Of a DNA stretch of 64,000 bases, positions 1 to 9,862 are shown piece after piece (positions within the stretch are counted from its first letter, which is position 1; each line of letters opens with the position of its first letter). The DNA is from Geobacter sp. GTDB taxonomy: Bacteria > Desulfobacterota > Desulfuromonadia > Geobacterales > DSM-12255. The position numbers were made by a program, and so were the translations under genes. Under the pieces are notes generated by a model. It was not told the origin of the DNA. It worked only from the letters and a program-made list of their open reading frames with translations, and did no database searches. The stretch covers positions 1 through 64,000 of the forward strand of contig VFJK01000061.1 in assembly GCA_009886125.1 (NCBI GenBank), written 5' to 3'.

Positions 1-708
<708 letters not shown>

Positions 709-716
709 TTGACAAC

Positions 717-742
717 AAAAGGCGGCCATGAGGTCGCCTTTT
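717..742 (+). terminator. Rho-independent terminator after dapL
   Basis: AAAGGCG...CGCCTTTT hairpin just after the stop codon. Confidence 0.7.
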
Positions 743-758
743 GCTCATAGGAAATGGG

Positions 759-1004
759 ATGAATACTTTAAAAGGTAAAGCGGTCCATGTTGATGAGCGC
801 TACCTCCATGTGGAACTGGAGGACGGCCGGATGATCTCCACGCCGATAGCCTGGTATCCCGAGCTGAAGAACGCCTCCCTGAATCAACTGACACAGTATC
901 GCTTCATTTGCCGAAAGACCGGCATTGAGTGGCCCGAGCTTGATTACCAGCTGAGCATAGCCGCCATCTTCACAGCTGAAACCAAGCTGGCAAAGGCTGC
1001 GTGA
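759..1004 (+). CDS. DUF2442 domain protein
   Basis: Short ORF; DxRYLHVELEDGRMISTPIAWYPEL is typical of DUF2442. Confidence 0.75.
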   Translation: MNTLKGKAVHVDERYLHVELEDGRMISTPIAWYPELKNASLNQLTQYRFICRKTGIEWPELDYQLSIAAIFTAETKLAKAA

Positions 1005-1037
1005 GCAGTGGCTCGGTATATATAAGGATATGAAATT

Positions 1038-1068
1038 GAAAGGGCGCCCATTACGGCGCCTTTTTTTA
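1038..1068 (+). terminator. Rho-independent terminator
   Basis: GGGCGCC-cattac-GGCGCC followed by a T-tract. Confidence 0.7.
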
Positions 1069-1151
1069 TCGTCAGAATTTATATTTGATTTGTTTTTAAA
1101 CCGTGCTATCCTTTATCTAGCTAGACTGTCTAGATATGTAAAGGGGGTGAC

Positions 1152-1433
1152 ATGAAGCCAAGCAAAGCAGCCCGATTACCCCATGACCGCGAATGGCAGC
1201 TTCAGGAAGCCAAGAACCGTTTGAGTCAGGTGGTTGACCTTGCCCTGCATGATGGCCCACAGACCATAACCCTGCGCGGCAAGCCTTCTGCAGTGGTAGT
1301 TTCTTTCGATGAATACCGGAAGCTGACCCTGCCACGCACCGGTCTATCGCAGTTTTTCCGGCAATCGCCATTGCACTCGGTTGAACTTGATTTCAGCCGC
1401 AGTAATGACCTGCCCCGCGAGGTGGAGCTTTGA
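1152..1433 (+). CDS. Phd/YefM-family antitoxin
   Basis: WQLQEAKNRLSQVVDLALHDGPQTITLRGKPSAVVVSFDEYRKL; stop overlaps the toxin start (TTGA). Confidence 0.88.
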   Translation: MKPSKAARLPHDREWQLQEAKNRLSQVVDLALHDGPQTITLRGKPSAVVVSFDEYRKLTLPRTGLSQFFRQSPLHSVELDFSRSNDLPREVEL

Positions 1434-1849
1434 AGTATCTGCTGGACACCTGCCTGATCTCCGAACTGGTGAAGAAAGAGCCGAATCCGGCAATAGTTAG
1501 CTGGCTGGATGAGCAGGACGAGCAGACGCTCTTTCTGAGTGTTCTGAACCTGGGTGAGCTGCAGAAGGGGATCAGCAAGCTCCCGGACGGTACGAAAAAG
1601 GACGAACTGCAAGCCTGGGTCGGTCTTGATCTTGTCGAGCGGTTTACCGGACGGATTCTGGAGTTAGACCTGGAGACGGCACTCTGCTGGGGGAGGCTCC
1701 AGGGAGTGGCGGAACAGGCAGGCGAGAAGTTGCCTGTAATGGATTCGCTTATCGCGGCCACTGCCTCGGCGCATGGGTTGACGGTGGTTACGCGCAATGC
1801 CAGGGATATGGAGCGATGCGGGATTAAGGTTTGTAACCCTTGGGAGTGA
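1430..1849 (+). CDS. PIN-domain toxin (VapC/FitB-like)
   Basis: MKYLLDTCLISELVKKEPN ... MDSLIAATASAHGLTVVTRNARD; TTG start coupled to the antitoxin stop. Confidence 0.9.
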   Translation: MKYLLDTCLISELVKKEPNPAIVSWLDEQDEQTLFLSVLNLGELQKGISKLPDGTKKDELQAWVGLDLVERFTGRILELDLETALCWGRLQGVAEQAGEKLPVMDSLIAATASAHGLTVVTRNARDMERCGIKVCNPWE

Positions 1850-2044
1850 GTTATCTGAACCCGGACACGGCCAAGACCGTTTGAAACTGGGATGAATAGG
1901 ATACACGCAGATGCTTTAAAACCAGGAAGCAGGCTGCAGTAGAAGTTCCGTATTATCCCAGTCTATCGGTTTAAGGTTTTATCAGCGTTCATCCCATTCA
2001 TCTGCGGTTACAAAAAAGGTTATCGGGTTTACTTCAGTGCTTAA

Positions 2045-2254
<210 letters not shown>

Positions 2255-2258
2255 CAAT

Positions 2259-2292
2259 GAAAGGGCGCCTAGGGGGTGCCCTTTTCTTTTAT
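2259..2292 (+). terminator. Hairpin terminator after the dapL tail copy
   Basis: AAAGGGCgcctaggggGTGCCCTTTTCTTTT. Confidence 0.6.
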
Positions 2293-2406
2293 GATTTCCG
2301 CTTGTTGATCAGATACAGTTAGGGTATGTTCACCACACGCTGTCCCGAATTCCACTTTAGTATCATTTTTATGTTATTTTTATGCGAGGAAGGAGTTTGA
2401 ATTAAA

Positions 2407-3621
2407 ATGCAATTAGAGCCACTGCCATTTGATCCAGATGATACATTCGAGGGAGAAGAAACTCTTGGTGCGGAATTGAGAGATAACTTGTCTACGCTGG
2501 GAGAAGATGCGACAAGTATATACCCCGATGCAATTGTCAACATCGTTCCTGAAAGTGCTTCGGTTTTCCAACTCAAACGCAAGCATGATAAAATACCGCC
2601 TCTCATAAAACTGGACCCTGATTTTCAACGTCATGCGGTCTGGACGCCAAAGCAACAAAGTGAATTGATTGAATCAATTCTTATGGGGATACCCCTTCCC
2701 CTGATTTACGTTAAAGAAGACGACAAGGGTGTCTATATCATCGTAGATGGACGCCAACGCCTGACGACTCTTTTTAGGTTCATGAGCCATGAATTTCCGC
2801 TCCAGAATCTCAACGTCTTGAAAGAGTTGAACGGCGCATTTTTCAGCGAAACTACAAAGAACGGAACTAAATTTGACAAGTACTTGACTCAGGCGCAGCA
2901 GAGCAAGATTGAAGATTGTCCGCTCACTCTGCATGTTATCAAACCTCCAACGCAGGATCGTGTCACCTTTGATTTATTTGACCGGGTCAATCGAGGCAGT
3001 ACACGGTTGAATAATCAAGAAATGAGAAATGCCATATATCAGGGTTCCGCAACAAAACTATTGAATACGCTAGTAGCTTTTGACAGTTTCAAGAAAGCGA
3101 CTGAAAACGCAATTAAGCCGGACCGTATGAAGGATAAATATCTAGTTCTCCGACTAATTGGATTTTACCTTTGGCGCAAAAAGCAGCTTTTGTCTGTAAA
3201 AGAAAAGGGTTTTCCCCTAGTTGAATACCGCAGTGATCTAGAAGATTTCCTAGGTAAAACAATGCTGTTCCTAAACGATCAAGCGGGCAGCACATTCTGC
3301 ACACAATTCCCGGCGCTGTTTGATGACACAATGAAAAAGTGCGTGACAGTATTGGGTATTGGGTGTTTTCGGTTGCCGAAAATAGGCGACGGACCGCGAC
3401 GACCAATTAGCATGGCACTATTTGAAACAGTAAGTTATTTGATAATCGAATTGATTGATCTGCCTCAAGAAACATATGAAGGAATAAAAACCAAGTTTGC
3501 GAATCTTCTCTCTGACGATAAATTCATCCTTAGTACGACATATACTGTCGACAGTAATATAAGTGTATATAAACGATTTGAACTCGTAGAAACAATTATA
3601 AAGGAGATGCGAAATGCTTAA
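2407..3621 (+). CDS. DUF262-domain protein (GmrSD N-terminal/ParB-like NTPase-nuclease fold), no C-terminal HNH/DUF1524 seen
   Basis: PDFQRHAVWTPKQQSELIESILMGIPLPLIY, DGRQRLTTLFRF, FDLFDRVNRGSTRLNNQEMRNAIYQG; AT-rich gene. Confidence 0.85.
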   Translation: MQLEPLPFDPDDTFEGEETLGAELRDNLSTLGEDATSIYPDAIVNIVPESASVFQLKRKHDKIPPLIKLDPDFQRHAVWTPKQQSELIESILMGIPLPLIYVKEDDKGVYIIVDGRQRLTTLFRFMSHEFPLQNLNVLKELNGAFFSETTKNGTKFDKYLTQAQQSKIEDCPLTLHVIKPPTQDRVTFDLFDRVNRGSTRLNNQEMRNAIYQGSATKLLNTLVAFDSFKKATENAIKPDRMKDKYLVLRLIGFYLWRKKQLLSVKEKGFPLVEYRSDLEDFLGKTMLFLNDQAGSTFCTQFPALFDDTMKKCVTVLGIGCFRLPKIGDGPRRPISMALFETVSYLIIELIDLPQETYEGIKTKFANLLSDDKFILSTTYTVDSNISVYKRFELVETIIKEMRNA

Positions 3622-4678
3622 TGCACTTCACATTCAAGGGTTCAAATGCTTCGATAAAGTCGAAATAACTTTGCGACGGATTAATATCTTCTCAGGGACT
3701 AACTCATCGGGTAAATCTTCGGCTATACAGGCATTTCTTCTGCTTTGTAATAATGCCACGAAAAATTCATCCTCTCCCCTCAATGGAATGTGGTTACGCT
3801 TAGGCACATTTGATGAGTGCCGCAATCATCGTATAAATGCACGCATATTCAGAGTTGGTGCAGTAAGCGGGAGTGAAATTTTTCAAGCGGAGTTTCGTTC
3901 AGCCAACGATGATTCAAACGATGTAGTTGTTACATTCACAGATGAATCTAGCACGATACAAACCCTAATAAGCCTTGAAGAGCGTCATGTTTATTATCTG
4001 CCTGCAAACCGAATTGGTCCTGAGGATTCATATCCAAGAAATTTTGATCGGGTGAATTTTCTTGGGAACAAGGCAGAATTTATTGTCGATTTTCTTTATA
4101 AAAACCGCAAACAAGAAGTTGCACCATCACTCATTGTCGATACAGCAAGCGTAACGCTTGAGTACCAAGTCAATTATTGGCTGGGGAAACTATTCGGCAT
4201 CAACAATACAATCCGTGACCTTGGACTCAGTAATAGCCTCTCTATGGAATTATCACTTGAGAATGGCAAGCCAGTCCGTCCCTATCATATGGGTTCCGGA
4301 GTCAGCTTCGCCATCGGCGTACTTGTCTCATGTCTAAGTGCACATCCTGACGATATCGTTGTCATTGAAAATCCGGAAATCCACCTGCACCCCAAAGCAC
4401 AATCGGAGCTGACAGAATTTCTTTGTTTCGCCGCCAATGCCGGTATTCAAGTTGTACTCGAAACGCATAGCGACCATGTGTTCAATGGTATACGAAAATC
4501 CATTGTGAAAAATGAAATCTCCCACACTGATGTAGCAGTGCATTTTTTTCAACTTGACGAAAATGCACTTTCTAAAAATACGGTCATTGACCTCAATGAG
4601 CATGGCCGCGTCATGACGCACCCTAAGGGTCTTTTTGACCAGTTTGACGATGACCTCGACCAGATTCTGGGGCTATGA
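3614..4678 (+). CDS. AAA/SMC-like ATPase, DUF3696-type (OLD/RecF-like)
   Basis: Walker A GTNSSGKSS; Walker B DIVVIENPEIHLHPKAQ; ETHSDHVFNGIR; start overlaps the upstream gene. Confidence 0.88.
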   Translation: MLNALHIQGFKCFDKVEITLRRINIFSGTNSSGKSSAIQAFLLLCNNATKNSSSPLNGMWLRLGTFDECRNHRINARIFRVGAVSGSEIFQAEFRSANDDSNDVVVTFTDESSTIQTLISLEERHVYYLPANRIGPEDSYPRNFDRVNFLGNKAEFIVDFLYKNRKQEVAPSLIVDTASVTLEYQVNYWLGKLFGINNTIRDLGLSNSLSMELSLENGKPVRPYHMGSGVSFAIGVLVSCLSAHPDDIVVIENPEIHLHPKAQSELTEFLCFAANAGIQVVLETHSDHVFNGIRKSIVKNEISHTDVAVHFFQLDENALSKNTVIDLNEHGRVMTHPKGLFDQFDDDLDQILGL

Positions 4679-4679
4679 C

Positions 4680-5516
4680 GTGCAGATACTCTTCAACGAA
4701 CTTTCATTAACCGGCCAATTCCCCACCCAAGATGCATTCGTCAGTAACGGTCTCTTCCCGTTTGTTGGTGTACTGAAGGAAATGCAGGGATTTTCAACAT
4801 TGCTGCTCAAAAAAAGTGATATGTGGAACAAAATGATCACGCCGACCAGCACTCTGCATTCTTTTCTTATCAATAATGCATTTCGAAAATCCGATGAAGT
4901 TCGTCGTTTAAAATCAGCAATTGCCGACCTCACTAAAGAGCCGTTCTGGGATACCGAAAGCAAGCAAGATCCTGACTCTACTTACCTTCTTGACGGGGAT
5001 GATATCTGGGGAAGTTCACCTGCGGAGGCCTGCGAACGAGATAAATCTGTTGTTTCCTTCATTTCATCAGTTGCTTCTTCAGATCCATTGAATATCATTC
5101 GGAATGGAATAAATGTTCCGTTATTGAATTTGACTTGTTCAGGCATACTTACGGAATATCTTTGGGCGAATGATCGAATAACTTTTGAATTATATCTGAA
5201 AGCACGTTTTTCAGGAGGCAAACTCGATTTTTCGAAGGTTGATGAGAAAATGGGGTTTTCCGGAATTCAATCTGCTGAACAATCTCTTTTTATTGATACA
5301 TTCAGAAGATTCGAAGAATTGACTTGGGATCAAATCTTTACTGACAGAGGACTTGACTATAAAGAATATGCTGGAATTATTAACAAGAGCTACCGAGATA
5401 TAAAAACGCATAAGTTTAGAGCATCAGAAAAAATACGCTGTCACGGGTATCGAGAAAAGGATTCTTTCTTTGTCATTGGCTTTGAGACCGATCATAAGTT
5501 GAGCGATAAGGGATAA
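4680..5516 (+). CDS. Uncharacterised protein, third gene of the DUF262-ATPase operon
   Basis: Open frame begins 1 nt after the ATPase stop with a GTG start; C-terminal HKFRASEKIRCHGYREKDSFFVIGFETDHKLSD; no family recognised with confidence. Confidence 0.75.
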   Translation: MQILFNELSLTGQFPTQDAFVSNGLFPFVGVLKEMQGFSTLLLKKSDMWNKMITPTSTLHSFLINNAFRKSDEVRRLKSAIADLTKEPFWDTESKQDPDSTYLLDGDDIWGSSPAEACERDKSVVSFISSVASSDPLNIIRNGINVPLLNLTCSGILTEYLWANDRITFELYLKARFSGGKLDFSKVDEKMGFSGIQSAEQSLFIDTFRRFEELTWDQIFTDRGLDYKEYAGIINKSYRDIKTHKFRASEKIRCHGYREKDSFFVIGFETDHKLSDKG

Positions 5517-5544
5517 ATATCTTGAATCCTTGTAACAATTTCAG

Positions 5545-5605
5545 GAATTCAGGGGACAGCATACTTAATTCAAAAGGCGACCAATCGGCCGCCTTTCTGT
5601 TTCTT
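5545..5605. repeat. RAYT-associated palindromic repeat, copy a
   Basis: GAATTCAGGGGACAGCATACTTAATTCAAAAGGCGACCAATCGGCCGCCTTTCTGTTTCT. Confidence 0.7.
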
Positions 5606-5679
5606 ACAGGTGATGTCCCAAGGTGAAACCTATGGGTTCAGGTCTTGAAATATAAGTTTTGCCTGCTATTCTCTCATCC

Positions 5680-5752
5680 ATGGCTCGTCCTCTGCGCATA
5701 GAACTCCCCGGTGCCGTCAATCACGTCACCTCGCGCGGCAGTAACCTGAATA
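5680..5752 (+). pseudogene. Truncated REP-associated tyrosine transposase (RAYT, Y1_Tnp) N-terminus
   Basis: MARPLRIELPGAVNHVTSRGSN is the canonical RAYT N-terminus; similarity ends after about 24 codons. Confidence 0.8.
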
Positions 5753-5810
5753 ACGACAGCCAACTCGGCCGGCAGCTTTGTGTCCGGCACCACTTCACGG
5801 GAGGTAGACG

Positions 5811-6472: not shown

Positions 6473-6533
6473 CATTCCGGGGACAGTTTACCTAATGCAA
6501 AAGGCGGTCGATTGGTCGCCTTTGTTTTTTTGT
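6473..6533. repeat. RAYT-associated palindromic repeat, copy b
   Basis: ATTCCGGGGACAGTTTACCTAATGCAAAAGGCGGTCGATTGGTCGCCTTTGTTTTTTT. Confidence 0.7.
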
Positions 6534-9131: not shown

Positions 9132-9186
9132 AGAATTCCGGGGACCTTACTTAAAAGGCGGCCAATCGGCCGCCTTTGCAGTTTCA
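9132..9186. repeat. RAYT-associated palindromic repeat, copy c
   Basis: AATTCCGGGGACCTTACTTAAAAGGCGGCCAATCGGCCGCCTTTGCAGTTTC. Confidence 0.65.
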
Positions 9187-9555
9187 CGCATGATGCAAAT
9201 TCGCCGGTTGAATGAGCGCCTCGGCAGGTATACCGAGCTTGTCGTGCAGATTGCGGATCATGGTAAGCGTGAGCCCGCGCTTGTGATTGAAGACTTCCGA
9301 AACCCTGGCACGGCTCCCCATTAACGGCTCCAGGTCCTGCCGGGTGATGCCGCGGCTCTCCATCCAGTACTTGATCGCTTCTACCGGATCGGGTGACGTG
9401 ATGACATAATGGTTCTTCTCAAAGGCTTCAAGCAGCGTGGTCAGAACTTCCAGCCGATCACCTTCCGGTGTATCCGGGGCAGCATCAAACAGACGCTCGA
9501 CTTCTGCAAGGGTTGCCTGATAATCTTCTTCCGATTTTATCGGCCTTATTTCCAT
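9184..9555 (-). CDS. higA: HigA-family antitoxin (XRE HTH)
   Basis: YWMESRGITRQDLEPLMGSRARVSEVFNHKRGLTLTMIRNLHDKLGIPAEALI. Confidence 0.88.
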   Translation of the reverse strand: MEIRPIKSEEDYQATLAEVERLFDAAPDTPEGDRLEVLTTLLEAFEKNHYVITSPDPVEAIKYWMESRGITRQDLEPLMGSRARVSEVFNHKRGLTLTMIRNLHDKLGIPAEALIQPANLHHA

Positions 9556-9568
9556 GGTATTTACTCCT

Positions 9569-9862
9569 TTAAACTTGCGTCGCATCAATCCGGTCATATT
9601 CTGCATGGGTACCTACAAACCGGATGTAGGCGATGCCGAAACGGTAATTGATCGCGACAATCAAACGATAATCGTTGCCCTTGATATTGAAAACAACCCG
9701 ATTGTTGGCAACGATGCTGGCGTTACGATAAATTGCCTTGATATCAGCAGGTGATTGCCATACGGCATGCTTCGCATCCTCGTACCACGCCTGCAATGAC
9801 TGCCGTGCCTGGGGATGACCTTCCCAAAACTCCCGCAAGGTTTTCAGCGCGATTATTCTCAT
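9569..9862 (-). CDS. higB: HigB-family mRNA interferase toxin
   Basis: MRIIALKTLREFWEGHPQARQSLQAWYEDAKHAVWQSPADIKAIY...RFVGTHAEYDRID; toxin-first order with higA. Confidence 0.9.
   Translation of the reverse strand: MRIIALKTLREFWEGHPQARQSLQAWYEDAKHAVWQSPADIKAIYRNASIVANNRVVFNIKGNDYRLIVAINYRFGIAYIRFVGTHAEYDRIDATQV

What the first reader, a model, noticed from the sequence alone, without database searches (positions are those of the whole stretch)
2407..5516. Candidate undescribed three-gene defence operon: DUF262 protein + DUF3696-like ATPase + unknown protein
Seen directly: three co-directional, overlapping or abutting ORFs (ATPase start inside the end of gene 1; gene 3 GTG start 1 nt after the ATPase stop). 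They lie in visibly AT-rich DNA between GC-rich housekeeping and accessory genes. Gene 1 has the DUF262 signature (DGRQR, PDFQRxxVW) found in GmrSD/BrxU-type modification-dependent enzymes, but no DUF1524/HNH partner domain is visible. Gene 2 has intact Walker A/B and an SMC/OLD-like ETHSDH motif. Gene 3 is unassigned. Known architecture logic (sensor ATPase plus DUF262 NTPase/nuclease plus accessory/effector) and a setting among TA modules, a RAYT relic and a duplicated gene tail make a mobile anti-phage or anti-plasmid role plausible. The defence role is inference.
Basis: partly seen in the sequence, partly recalled or inferred. Interest (0 to 1): 0.85.

Follow-up and report, generated by a model that had tools for sequence, protein, structure and literature searches.

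The report
Menshen anti-phage operon (NsnABC)
The three genes are an intact copy of Menshen, a bacterial anti-virus system already catalogued and tested against phages, here ending in a protein whose tail looks like an RNA-cutting toxin; it is a good find but not a new kind of system.

Summary
All three proteins match, full length, the PADLOC models of one known system, Menshen: NsnA 8e-101, NsnB 2.7e-95, NsnC 6.7e-86. The same architecture was described again in 2025 as "ptuXYZ". All seven close NsnC relatives, from several phyla, carry B and C in the same order, and A too (cut by a contig end in one). NsnA falls in one supported Menshen clade (97/92). dN/dS is 0.07-0.19 in all three genes. 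The unassigned third gene is resolved in part: its last ~100 residues are a MAG6450-family domain. Stand-alone versions sit beside a Panacea antitoxin gene in six of seven sampled loci. Its predicted fold resembles RelE/HigB/YoeB RNase toxins. Best mechanism: NsnA and NsnB sense infection and release an RNase toxin on NsnC. The sensing and release steps are inferred. The insertion site, the 3' end of a dapL-like gene, looks like a cargo hotspot in relatives. Verdict: new member of a known kind, with a variable effector slot that is itself known.

The parts
2407..3621 (+). nsnA: DUF262 (GmrSD_N, ParB-like NTPase fold) protein, 404 aa, no DUF1524
   Evidence: PADLOC NsnA 8e-101 over residues 38-402; Pfam GmrSD_N 6.2e-27; Menshen clade 97/92
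2746..2760 (+). DGRQR nucleotide-binding motif of NsnA (residues 114-118)
   Evidence: D114, G115, Q117 and R118 conserved in at least 14 of 15 Menshen NsnA
3614..4678 (+). nsnB: SMC/OLD-like AAA ATPase with C-terminal DUF3696, 354 aa, no TOPRIM domain found
   Evidence: PADLOC NsnB 2.7e-95 over residues 1-352; Pfam AAA_15 4e-28, DUF3696 8.3e-12
3695..3718 (+). Walker A of NsnB (GTNSSGKS, residues 28-35)
   Evidence: G28, N30, G33 and K34 conserved in at least 15 of 16 NsnB
4352..4393 (+). Walker B region of NsnB (IVVIENPEIHLHP)
   Evidence: P254, E255, H257-P260 conserved in at least 15 of 16 NsnB
4680..5516 (+). nsnC, GTG start, 278 aa: NsnC N-terminal part plus C-terminal toxin-like domain
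   Evidence: PADLOC NsnC PDLC03891 6.7e-86, residues 2-278 of 278
5235..5501 (+). MAG6450-family, RelE/HigB-like (BECR) domain of NsnC, the likely effector
   Evidence: NCBIfam NF046006 5.6e-5 in the window, 1.5e-9 in relative L037; 31% identity over 78 aa to a stand-alone 104-aa protein in L066; fold like RelE/HigB
2103..2254 (+). Duplicated 3' end of the dapL-like gene (first copy 557-708): scar of insertion at this site
2259..2285 (+). Intrinsic-terminator-like hairpin that follows the gene tail and separates it from nsnA
   Evidence: 12-pair stem followed by a T-rich stretch; consensus match only

Best explanation
This is an intact, horizontally acquired Menshen (NsnABC) anti-phage operon whose NsnC carries a C-terminal BECR-fold (RelE/HigB/YoeB-like, MAG6450-family) toxin domain; it is what Gerdes (2025) called ptuXYZ. 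Most likely working: NsnA (DUF262, ParB-like NTP-binding fold) and NsnB (a dimerising SMC/OLD-like ATPase) form the sensor and gate. The N-terminal half of NsnC docks on them. On infection, nucleotide-driven rearrangement frees or activates the C-terminal domain, which cleaves RNA and stops translation, so the phage is not propagated (abortive infection). Shown: the gene set, the family memberships, motif conservation, purifying selection, and the toxin-family relatives and predicted fold of the C-terminal domain. Inferred: complex formation, the trigger, RNA as the target, and abortive infection as the outcome. My confidence is about 0.97 for the identity alone and about 0.5 for the mechanism alone.
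For: Identity: full-length PADLOC matches for all three genes. All seven close NsnC relatives carry NsnB-NsnC in the same order with NsnA (cut by the contig end in L034), in contigs labelled Deltaproteobacteria, Desulfobacteraceae, Proteobacteria, Cytophagales, Aminicenantes and Chlorobiaceae. Eight more distant triplets all have a third gene that matches an NsnC model. NsnA lies in one Menshen clade. dN/dS 0.07-0.19. Effector: NCBIfam MAG6450; homology to stand-alone proteins that follow a SocA/Panacea antitoxin gene in six loci (pairwise E 1e-6) and to a two-gene, toxin-antitoxin-like pair in L066 (E 6e-14). The AF2 model of the C-terminal domain (pLDDT 77.5) matches RelE, HigB, YafQ and YoeB chains in nearly all top PDB hits, probability up to 1.00. 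Another Menshen NsnC (L042) ends in a DUF4160/DhiT toxin domain, which fits a swappable toxin tail. NsnA-like DUF262 genes without NsnB are followed by a HEPN RNase gene in 9 of 10 sampled loci, so this DUF262 type pairs with RNase-type effectors more than once. Literature: loss of the DUF262 gene abolishes Menshen resistance (PMC10952713).
Against: No phage assay of this copy. Foldseek E-values for the BECR match are 0.008-0.3, none below 0.001, and the window's own NCBIfam score (23.6 bits) is under the curated cut-off of 40. Catalytic residues of RelE-type RNases could not be assigned. No PDB relative by sequence. The N-terminal part of NsnC is modelled at pLDDT below 50, so the PIN-like fold claimed for PtuZ is not confirmed here. 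The review calls Menshen's partner a predicted OLD nuclease, which could make DNA the target.
Confidence: 0.72

Rival explanations
1. Menshen as a DNA-targeting, type IV-restriction-like system: NsnA (DUF262) recognises modified or foreign DNA, NsnB (OLD-like) is or loads the nuclease, and NsnC is only a structural or specificity subunit.
For: DUF262 is shared with GmrSD, BrxU and SspE; the review PMC10952713 describes Menshen's partner as a predicted OLD nuclease; NsnB is closest by sequence to OLD and PtuA among solved chains.
Against: No DUF1524/HNH in NsnA and no TOPRIM in NsnB, which ends with DUF3696. NsnC tails include toxin domains found alone in toxin-antitoxin-like gene pairs.
Confidence: 0.2
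2. A true new system that only resembles Menshen.
For: The NsnC variant is rare: only 7 loci found in the genome-contig scan, none in plasmids or viral contigs.
Against: All three genes match single PADLOC system models end to end and fall inside the Menshen NsnA clade; ptuXYZ with the same layout is published.
Confidence: 0.03
3. A decayed or silent relic in a genomic scrapyard next to a RAYT relic and a gene-tail scar.
For: Neighbouring RAYT and dapL-like tail copies are fragments.
Against: All three ORFs are full length, their motifs are intact, and dN/dS is 0.07-0.19 against four relatives.
Confidence: 0.05

Closest known systems
Menshen (NsnA-NsnB-NsnC; Millman et al. 2022; PADLOC-DB models PDLC03877, PDLC03878, PDLC03891)
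   Same: All three genes, full length, same order; DUF262 without DUF1524; ATPase; variable third gene
   Different: Nothing at the level of architecture. This copy belongs to the NsnC sub-type with a MAG6450/BECR tail; other sub-types end in DUF4160/DhiT, weakly PLD-like or unassigned regions
ptuXYZ (Gerdes 2025, PMC11980606)
   Different: Described from sequence and modelling only, and the paper does not mention Menshen. The sequences of its 17 operons could not be compared here, so the equivalence rests on architecture and fold
GmrSD / BrxU / SspE (type IV restriction)
   Same: DUF262 with the D-G-x-Q-R motif
   Different: No DUF1524 HNH nuclease domain; separate ATPase and NsnC subunits
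Septu / retron I-A (PtuA-PtuB)
   Same: NsnB resembles PtuA in its ATPase core
   Different: No gene with an HNH/PtuB match among the three; DUF262 subunit instead
MAG6450-family stand-alone proteins next to SocA/Panacea antitoxin genes
   Same: C-terminal ~80-100 residues of NsnC are homologous
   Different: In Menshen the domain is fused to an NsnC N-terminal part and has no dedicated antitoxin gene; NsnA/NsnB would have to restrain it

Membership tests
Menshen | NsnA: DUF262 protein of the NsnA family | tested here: met
   PADLOC NsnA 8e-101, against 7e-31 for PD-T4-2_A; Menshen clade 97/92
Menshen | NsnB ATPase directly after NsnA | tested here: met
   PADLOC NsnB 2.7e-95, full length, 8-nt overlap
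Menshen | NsnC directly after NsnB | tested here: met
   PADLOC NsnC 6.7e-86, full length, 1 nt after the NsnB stop
Menshen | Protects against phages; needs NsnA | not testable with these tools
   Reported for the tested Menshen operon in a review (PMC10952713), not for this copy
ptuXYZ | DUF262 without DUF1524, followed by a PtuA-like ATPase | tested here: met
ptuXYZ | PtuZ C-terminal BECR fold | tested here: met
   Foldseek top hits RelE/HigB/YafQ/YoeB, probability up to 1.00 but E at best 0.008; supported by toxin-antitoxin context
ptuXYZ | PtuZ N-terminal PIN-like domain | tested here: inconclusive
   N-terminal region modelled at pLDDT below 50
GmrSD / BrxU | DUF1524 (HNH) nuclease domain | tested here: not met
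   Only GmrSD_N found in gene 1 and nothing comparable in genes 2-3
Septu | PtuB HNH nuclease partner | tested here: not met
   No HNH match in any of the three genes
OLD / Gabija | C-terminal TOPRIM nuclease domain on the ATPase | tested here: not met
   Gene 2 ends with DUF3696 at residue 350 of 354; no TOPRIM match
PD-T4-2 | PD-T4-2_A with its own partner gene | tested here: not met
   NsnA outscores PD-T4-2_A by about 230 bits, and genes 2-3 are NsnB and NsnC

The most novel reading that the evidence does not exclude
Menshen is not a DNA-cutting system but a gate that holds toxin-antitoxin-type toxins: NsnA-NsnB act as a phage-controlled antitoxin for interchangeable NsnC tails (here a MAG6450/BECR RNase, elsewhere DUF4160/DhiT or PLD-like domains). 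MAG6450 would then be an RNase toxin family used both by Panacea toxin-antitoxin pairs and by Menshen.
Probability: 0.45. Interest if true: 0.5.

Novelty: new member of a known kind. Interest (0 to 1): 0.25.

Why it matters
As a find it is modest: an intact Menshen operon, with its likely effector identified. It would matter more if the toxin-gate reading is true. It would join three separately named things (Menshen, ptuXYZ and the MAG6450/Panacea proteins) and give a direct test, RNA cleavage by the NsnC tail, for a system whose effector the sources read here leave open.

Tried and rejected
PHROGs gave only families of unknown function or weak, uninformative matches. Sequence search of the PDB with NsnC, alone or as a profile, found nothing meaningful. 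No NsnC in plasmids or viral contigs. NsnA relatives in phages are under 60% identical DUF262 proteins of mostly partial coverage, so no phage carrier was traced. The full-length NsnC model is poor (pLDDT 52), so only its C-terminal part was interpreted. A sigma-70 promoter scan gave no more than chance. Considered and rejected: type IV restriction (no DUF1524), Septu (no HNH), OLD/Gabija (no TOPRIM), PD-T4-2. The paper most likely to cover NsnC diversity (Li et al. [quoted passage not shown] only its title was seen in two reference lists, so I cannot say whether this NsnC sub-type is in it.

Full report
Observation. GC falls to 37-46% against 55-62% in much of the flanks. A terminator-like hairpin at 2259-2285 separates them from the upstream gene tail. 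The locus is single-copy in its genome.

Identity. The PADLOC models give NsnA 8e-101 for gene 1, NsnB 2.7e-95 for gene 2 and NsnC (PDLC03891) 6.7e-86 for gene 3, each nearly end to end. These are the components of Menshen; that the Nsn names belong to Menshen, and its origin (Millman et al. 2022), are from my own knowledge and agree with the review PMC10952713. That review says Menshen has a DUF262 gene without DUF1524, linked to a predicted OLD nuclease, and that losing the DUF262 gene abolishes resistance. The same three-gene layout was described in 2025 as ptuXYZ: DUF262 protein, PtuA-like ATPase, and a two-domain protein with a PIN-like N-terminus and a YoeB-like BECR C-terminus (PMC11980606). 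A term search found no mention of Menshen in that paper.

Conservation. A scan of 85,462 species genomes with gene 3 found seven relatives at 69-82% identity in contigs labelled Deltaproteobacteria, Desulfobacteraceae, Cytophagales, Aminicenantes, Proteobacteria and Chlorobiaceae. All seven have NsnB and NsnC in the same order and NsnA before them; in L034 NsnA is cut by the contig end. High identity across phyla points to horizontal transfer. A 396-genome sample of the window's phylum had NsnA-type matches in 36 genomes. Of 20 stretches fetched, eight are further triplets with a diverged NsnC that still matches an NsnC model. A maximum-likelihood tree puts all Menshen NsnA, the window's included, on one side of a 97/92 branch. 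dN/dS against four relatives is 0.07-0.19 for all three genes where it could be computed; the D-G-x-Q-R and Walker residues are conserved.

The third gene. Among most NsnC proteins the N-terminal part is shared (F/VN-D/E-LSL start, weak matches over ~120 aa) and the C-terminal part varies. The L042 protein ends in DUF4160 (over the Pfam cut-off), which NCBIfam scores as DhiT toxin, below its cut-off. L045 has a weak PLD-like match, below cut-off. The window's protein ends in a MAG6450-family domain (5.6e-5; 1.5e-9 in relative L037; both below the curated cut-off). Stand-alone MAG6450 proteins in seven other genomes sit beside a SocA/Panacea antitoxin gene in six cases and directly after a small gene in the seventh, L066, where the pairwise match to NsnC is E 6e-14. 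I read that small gene as antitoxin-like by eye; Pfam does not assign it. An AlphaFold2 model of residues 162-278 (pLDDT 77.5, pTM 0.70) matches RelE, HigB, YafQ and YoeB chains in nearly all top PDB hits. The full-length model gave the same answer. The E-values (0.008 and up) are not decisive alone; with the toxin-antitoxin context and the independent PtuZ modelling, I take the BECR fold as likely.

Mechanism. Best reading: NsnA and NsnB sense and gate, NsnC delivers. DUF262 binds nucleotide in SspE, BrxU and GmrSD (PMC10952713), and NsnB has an intact SMC/OLD-type ATPase core but no TOPRIM. So the only recognisable toxin-like module is the NsnC tail. NsnA-like DUF262 genes that lack NsnB are followed by a HEPN RNase gene in nine of ten sampled loci, an association noted in 2013 as RiboL-PSP HEPN 'operon with ParB' (PMC3710099). 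DUF262 proteins of this type thus pair with RNase-like effectors more than once. Trigger, complex and RNA target remain inference.

Setting. The operon lies downstream of a duplicated 3' end of a dapL-like gene (557-707 and 2103-2253). The second copy is slightly closer to the same gene of some other genera (91-94% over 103-138 nt) than to the window's own (104 of 118, 88%). In relatives the same gene end carries tail duplications too (L091, L092, L093), a tyrosine integrase right behind it (L096), a ThiF/E2-like plus dCTP-deaminase-like cluster (L090) or a VapBC-like pair with a DndB-like gene (L094). It looks like a cargo hotspot, and Menshen is one of its passengers.

Novelty. New member of a known kind. 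Whether this NsnC sub-type is already tabulated in Li et al. 2025 (gkaf357) could not be checked.

Noticed in passing
L048, L049, L050, L051, L052, L053, L054, L056, L057: NsnA-like DUF262 genes without NsnB are followed directly by a HEPN_RiboL-PSP gene in 9 of 10 sampled loci; the three HEPN proteins tested matched no PADLOC model. A ParB/RiboL-PSP-HEPN operon link was noted in 2013 (PMC3710099).
   Followed up: partly
window 1-5800 and L088-L097: The 3' end of a dapL-like gene looks like an insertion hotspot: gene-tail duplications in four genomes, a tyrosine integrase next to it in L096, and different defence-like or toxin-antitoxin cargo in several relatives.
   Followed up: partly
L059, L060, L061, L062, L064, L065: Stand-alone MAG6450-family proteins sit next to a SocA/Panacea antitoxin gene in these six loci: MAG6450 is probably a Panacea-paired toxin family.
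   Followed up: partly
L090:6852-10347: Cluster of ThiF/E1-like, Prok-E2_E-like and dCTP-deaminase-like genes at the same gene end in a relative.
   Followed up: no
window 1152-1849 and 9184-9862: A Phd/VapC-type toxin-antitoxin pair between the two gene-tail copies (Pfam PhdYeFM and PIN), and an unverified HigBA-like pair further on (read by eye).
   Followed up: partly
window 5547-5602 and 6474-6529: Two 56-nt copies, 79% identical, of a palindromic repeat flank a flavodoxin-like gene near the RAYT relic; probably a REP-like repeat.
   Followed up: no
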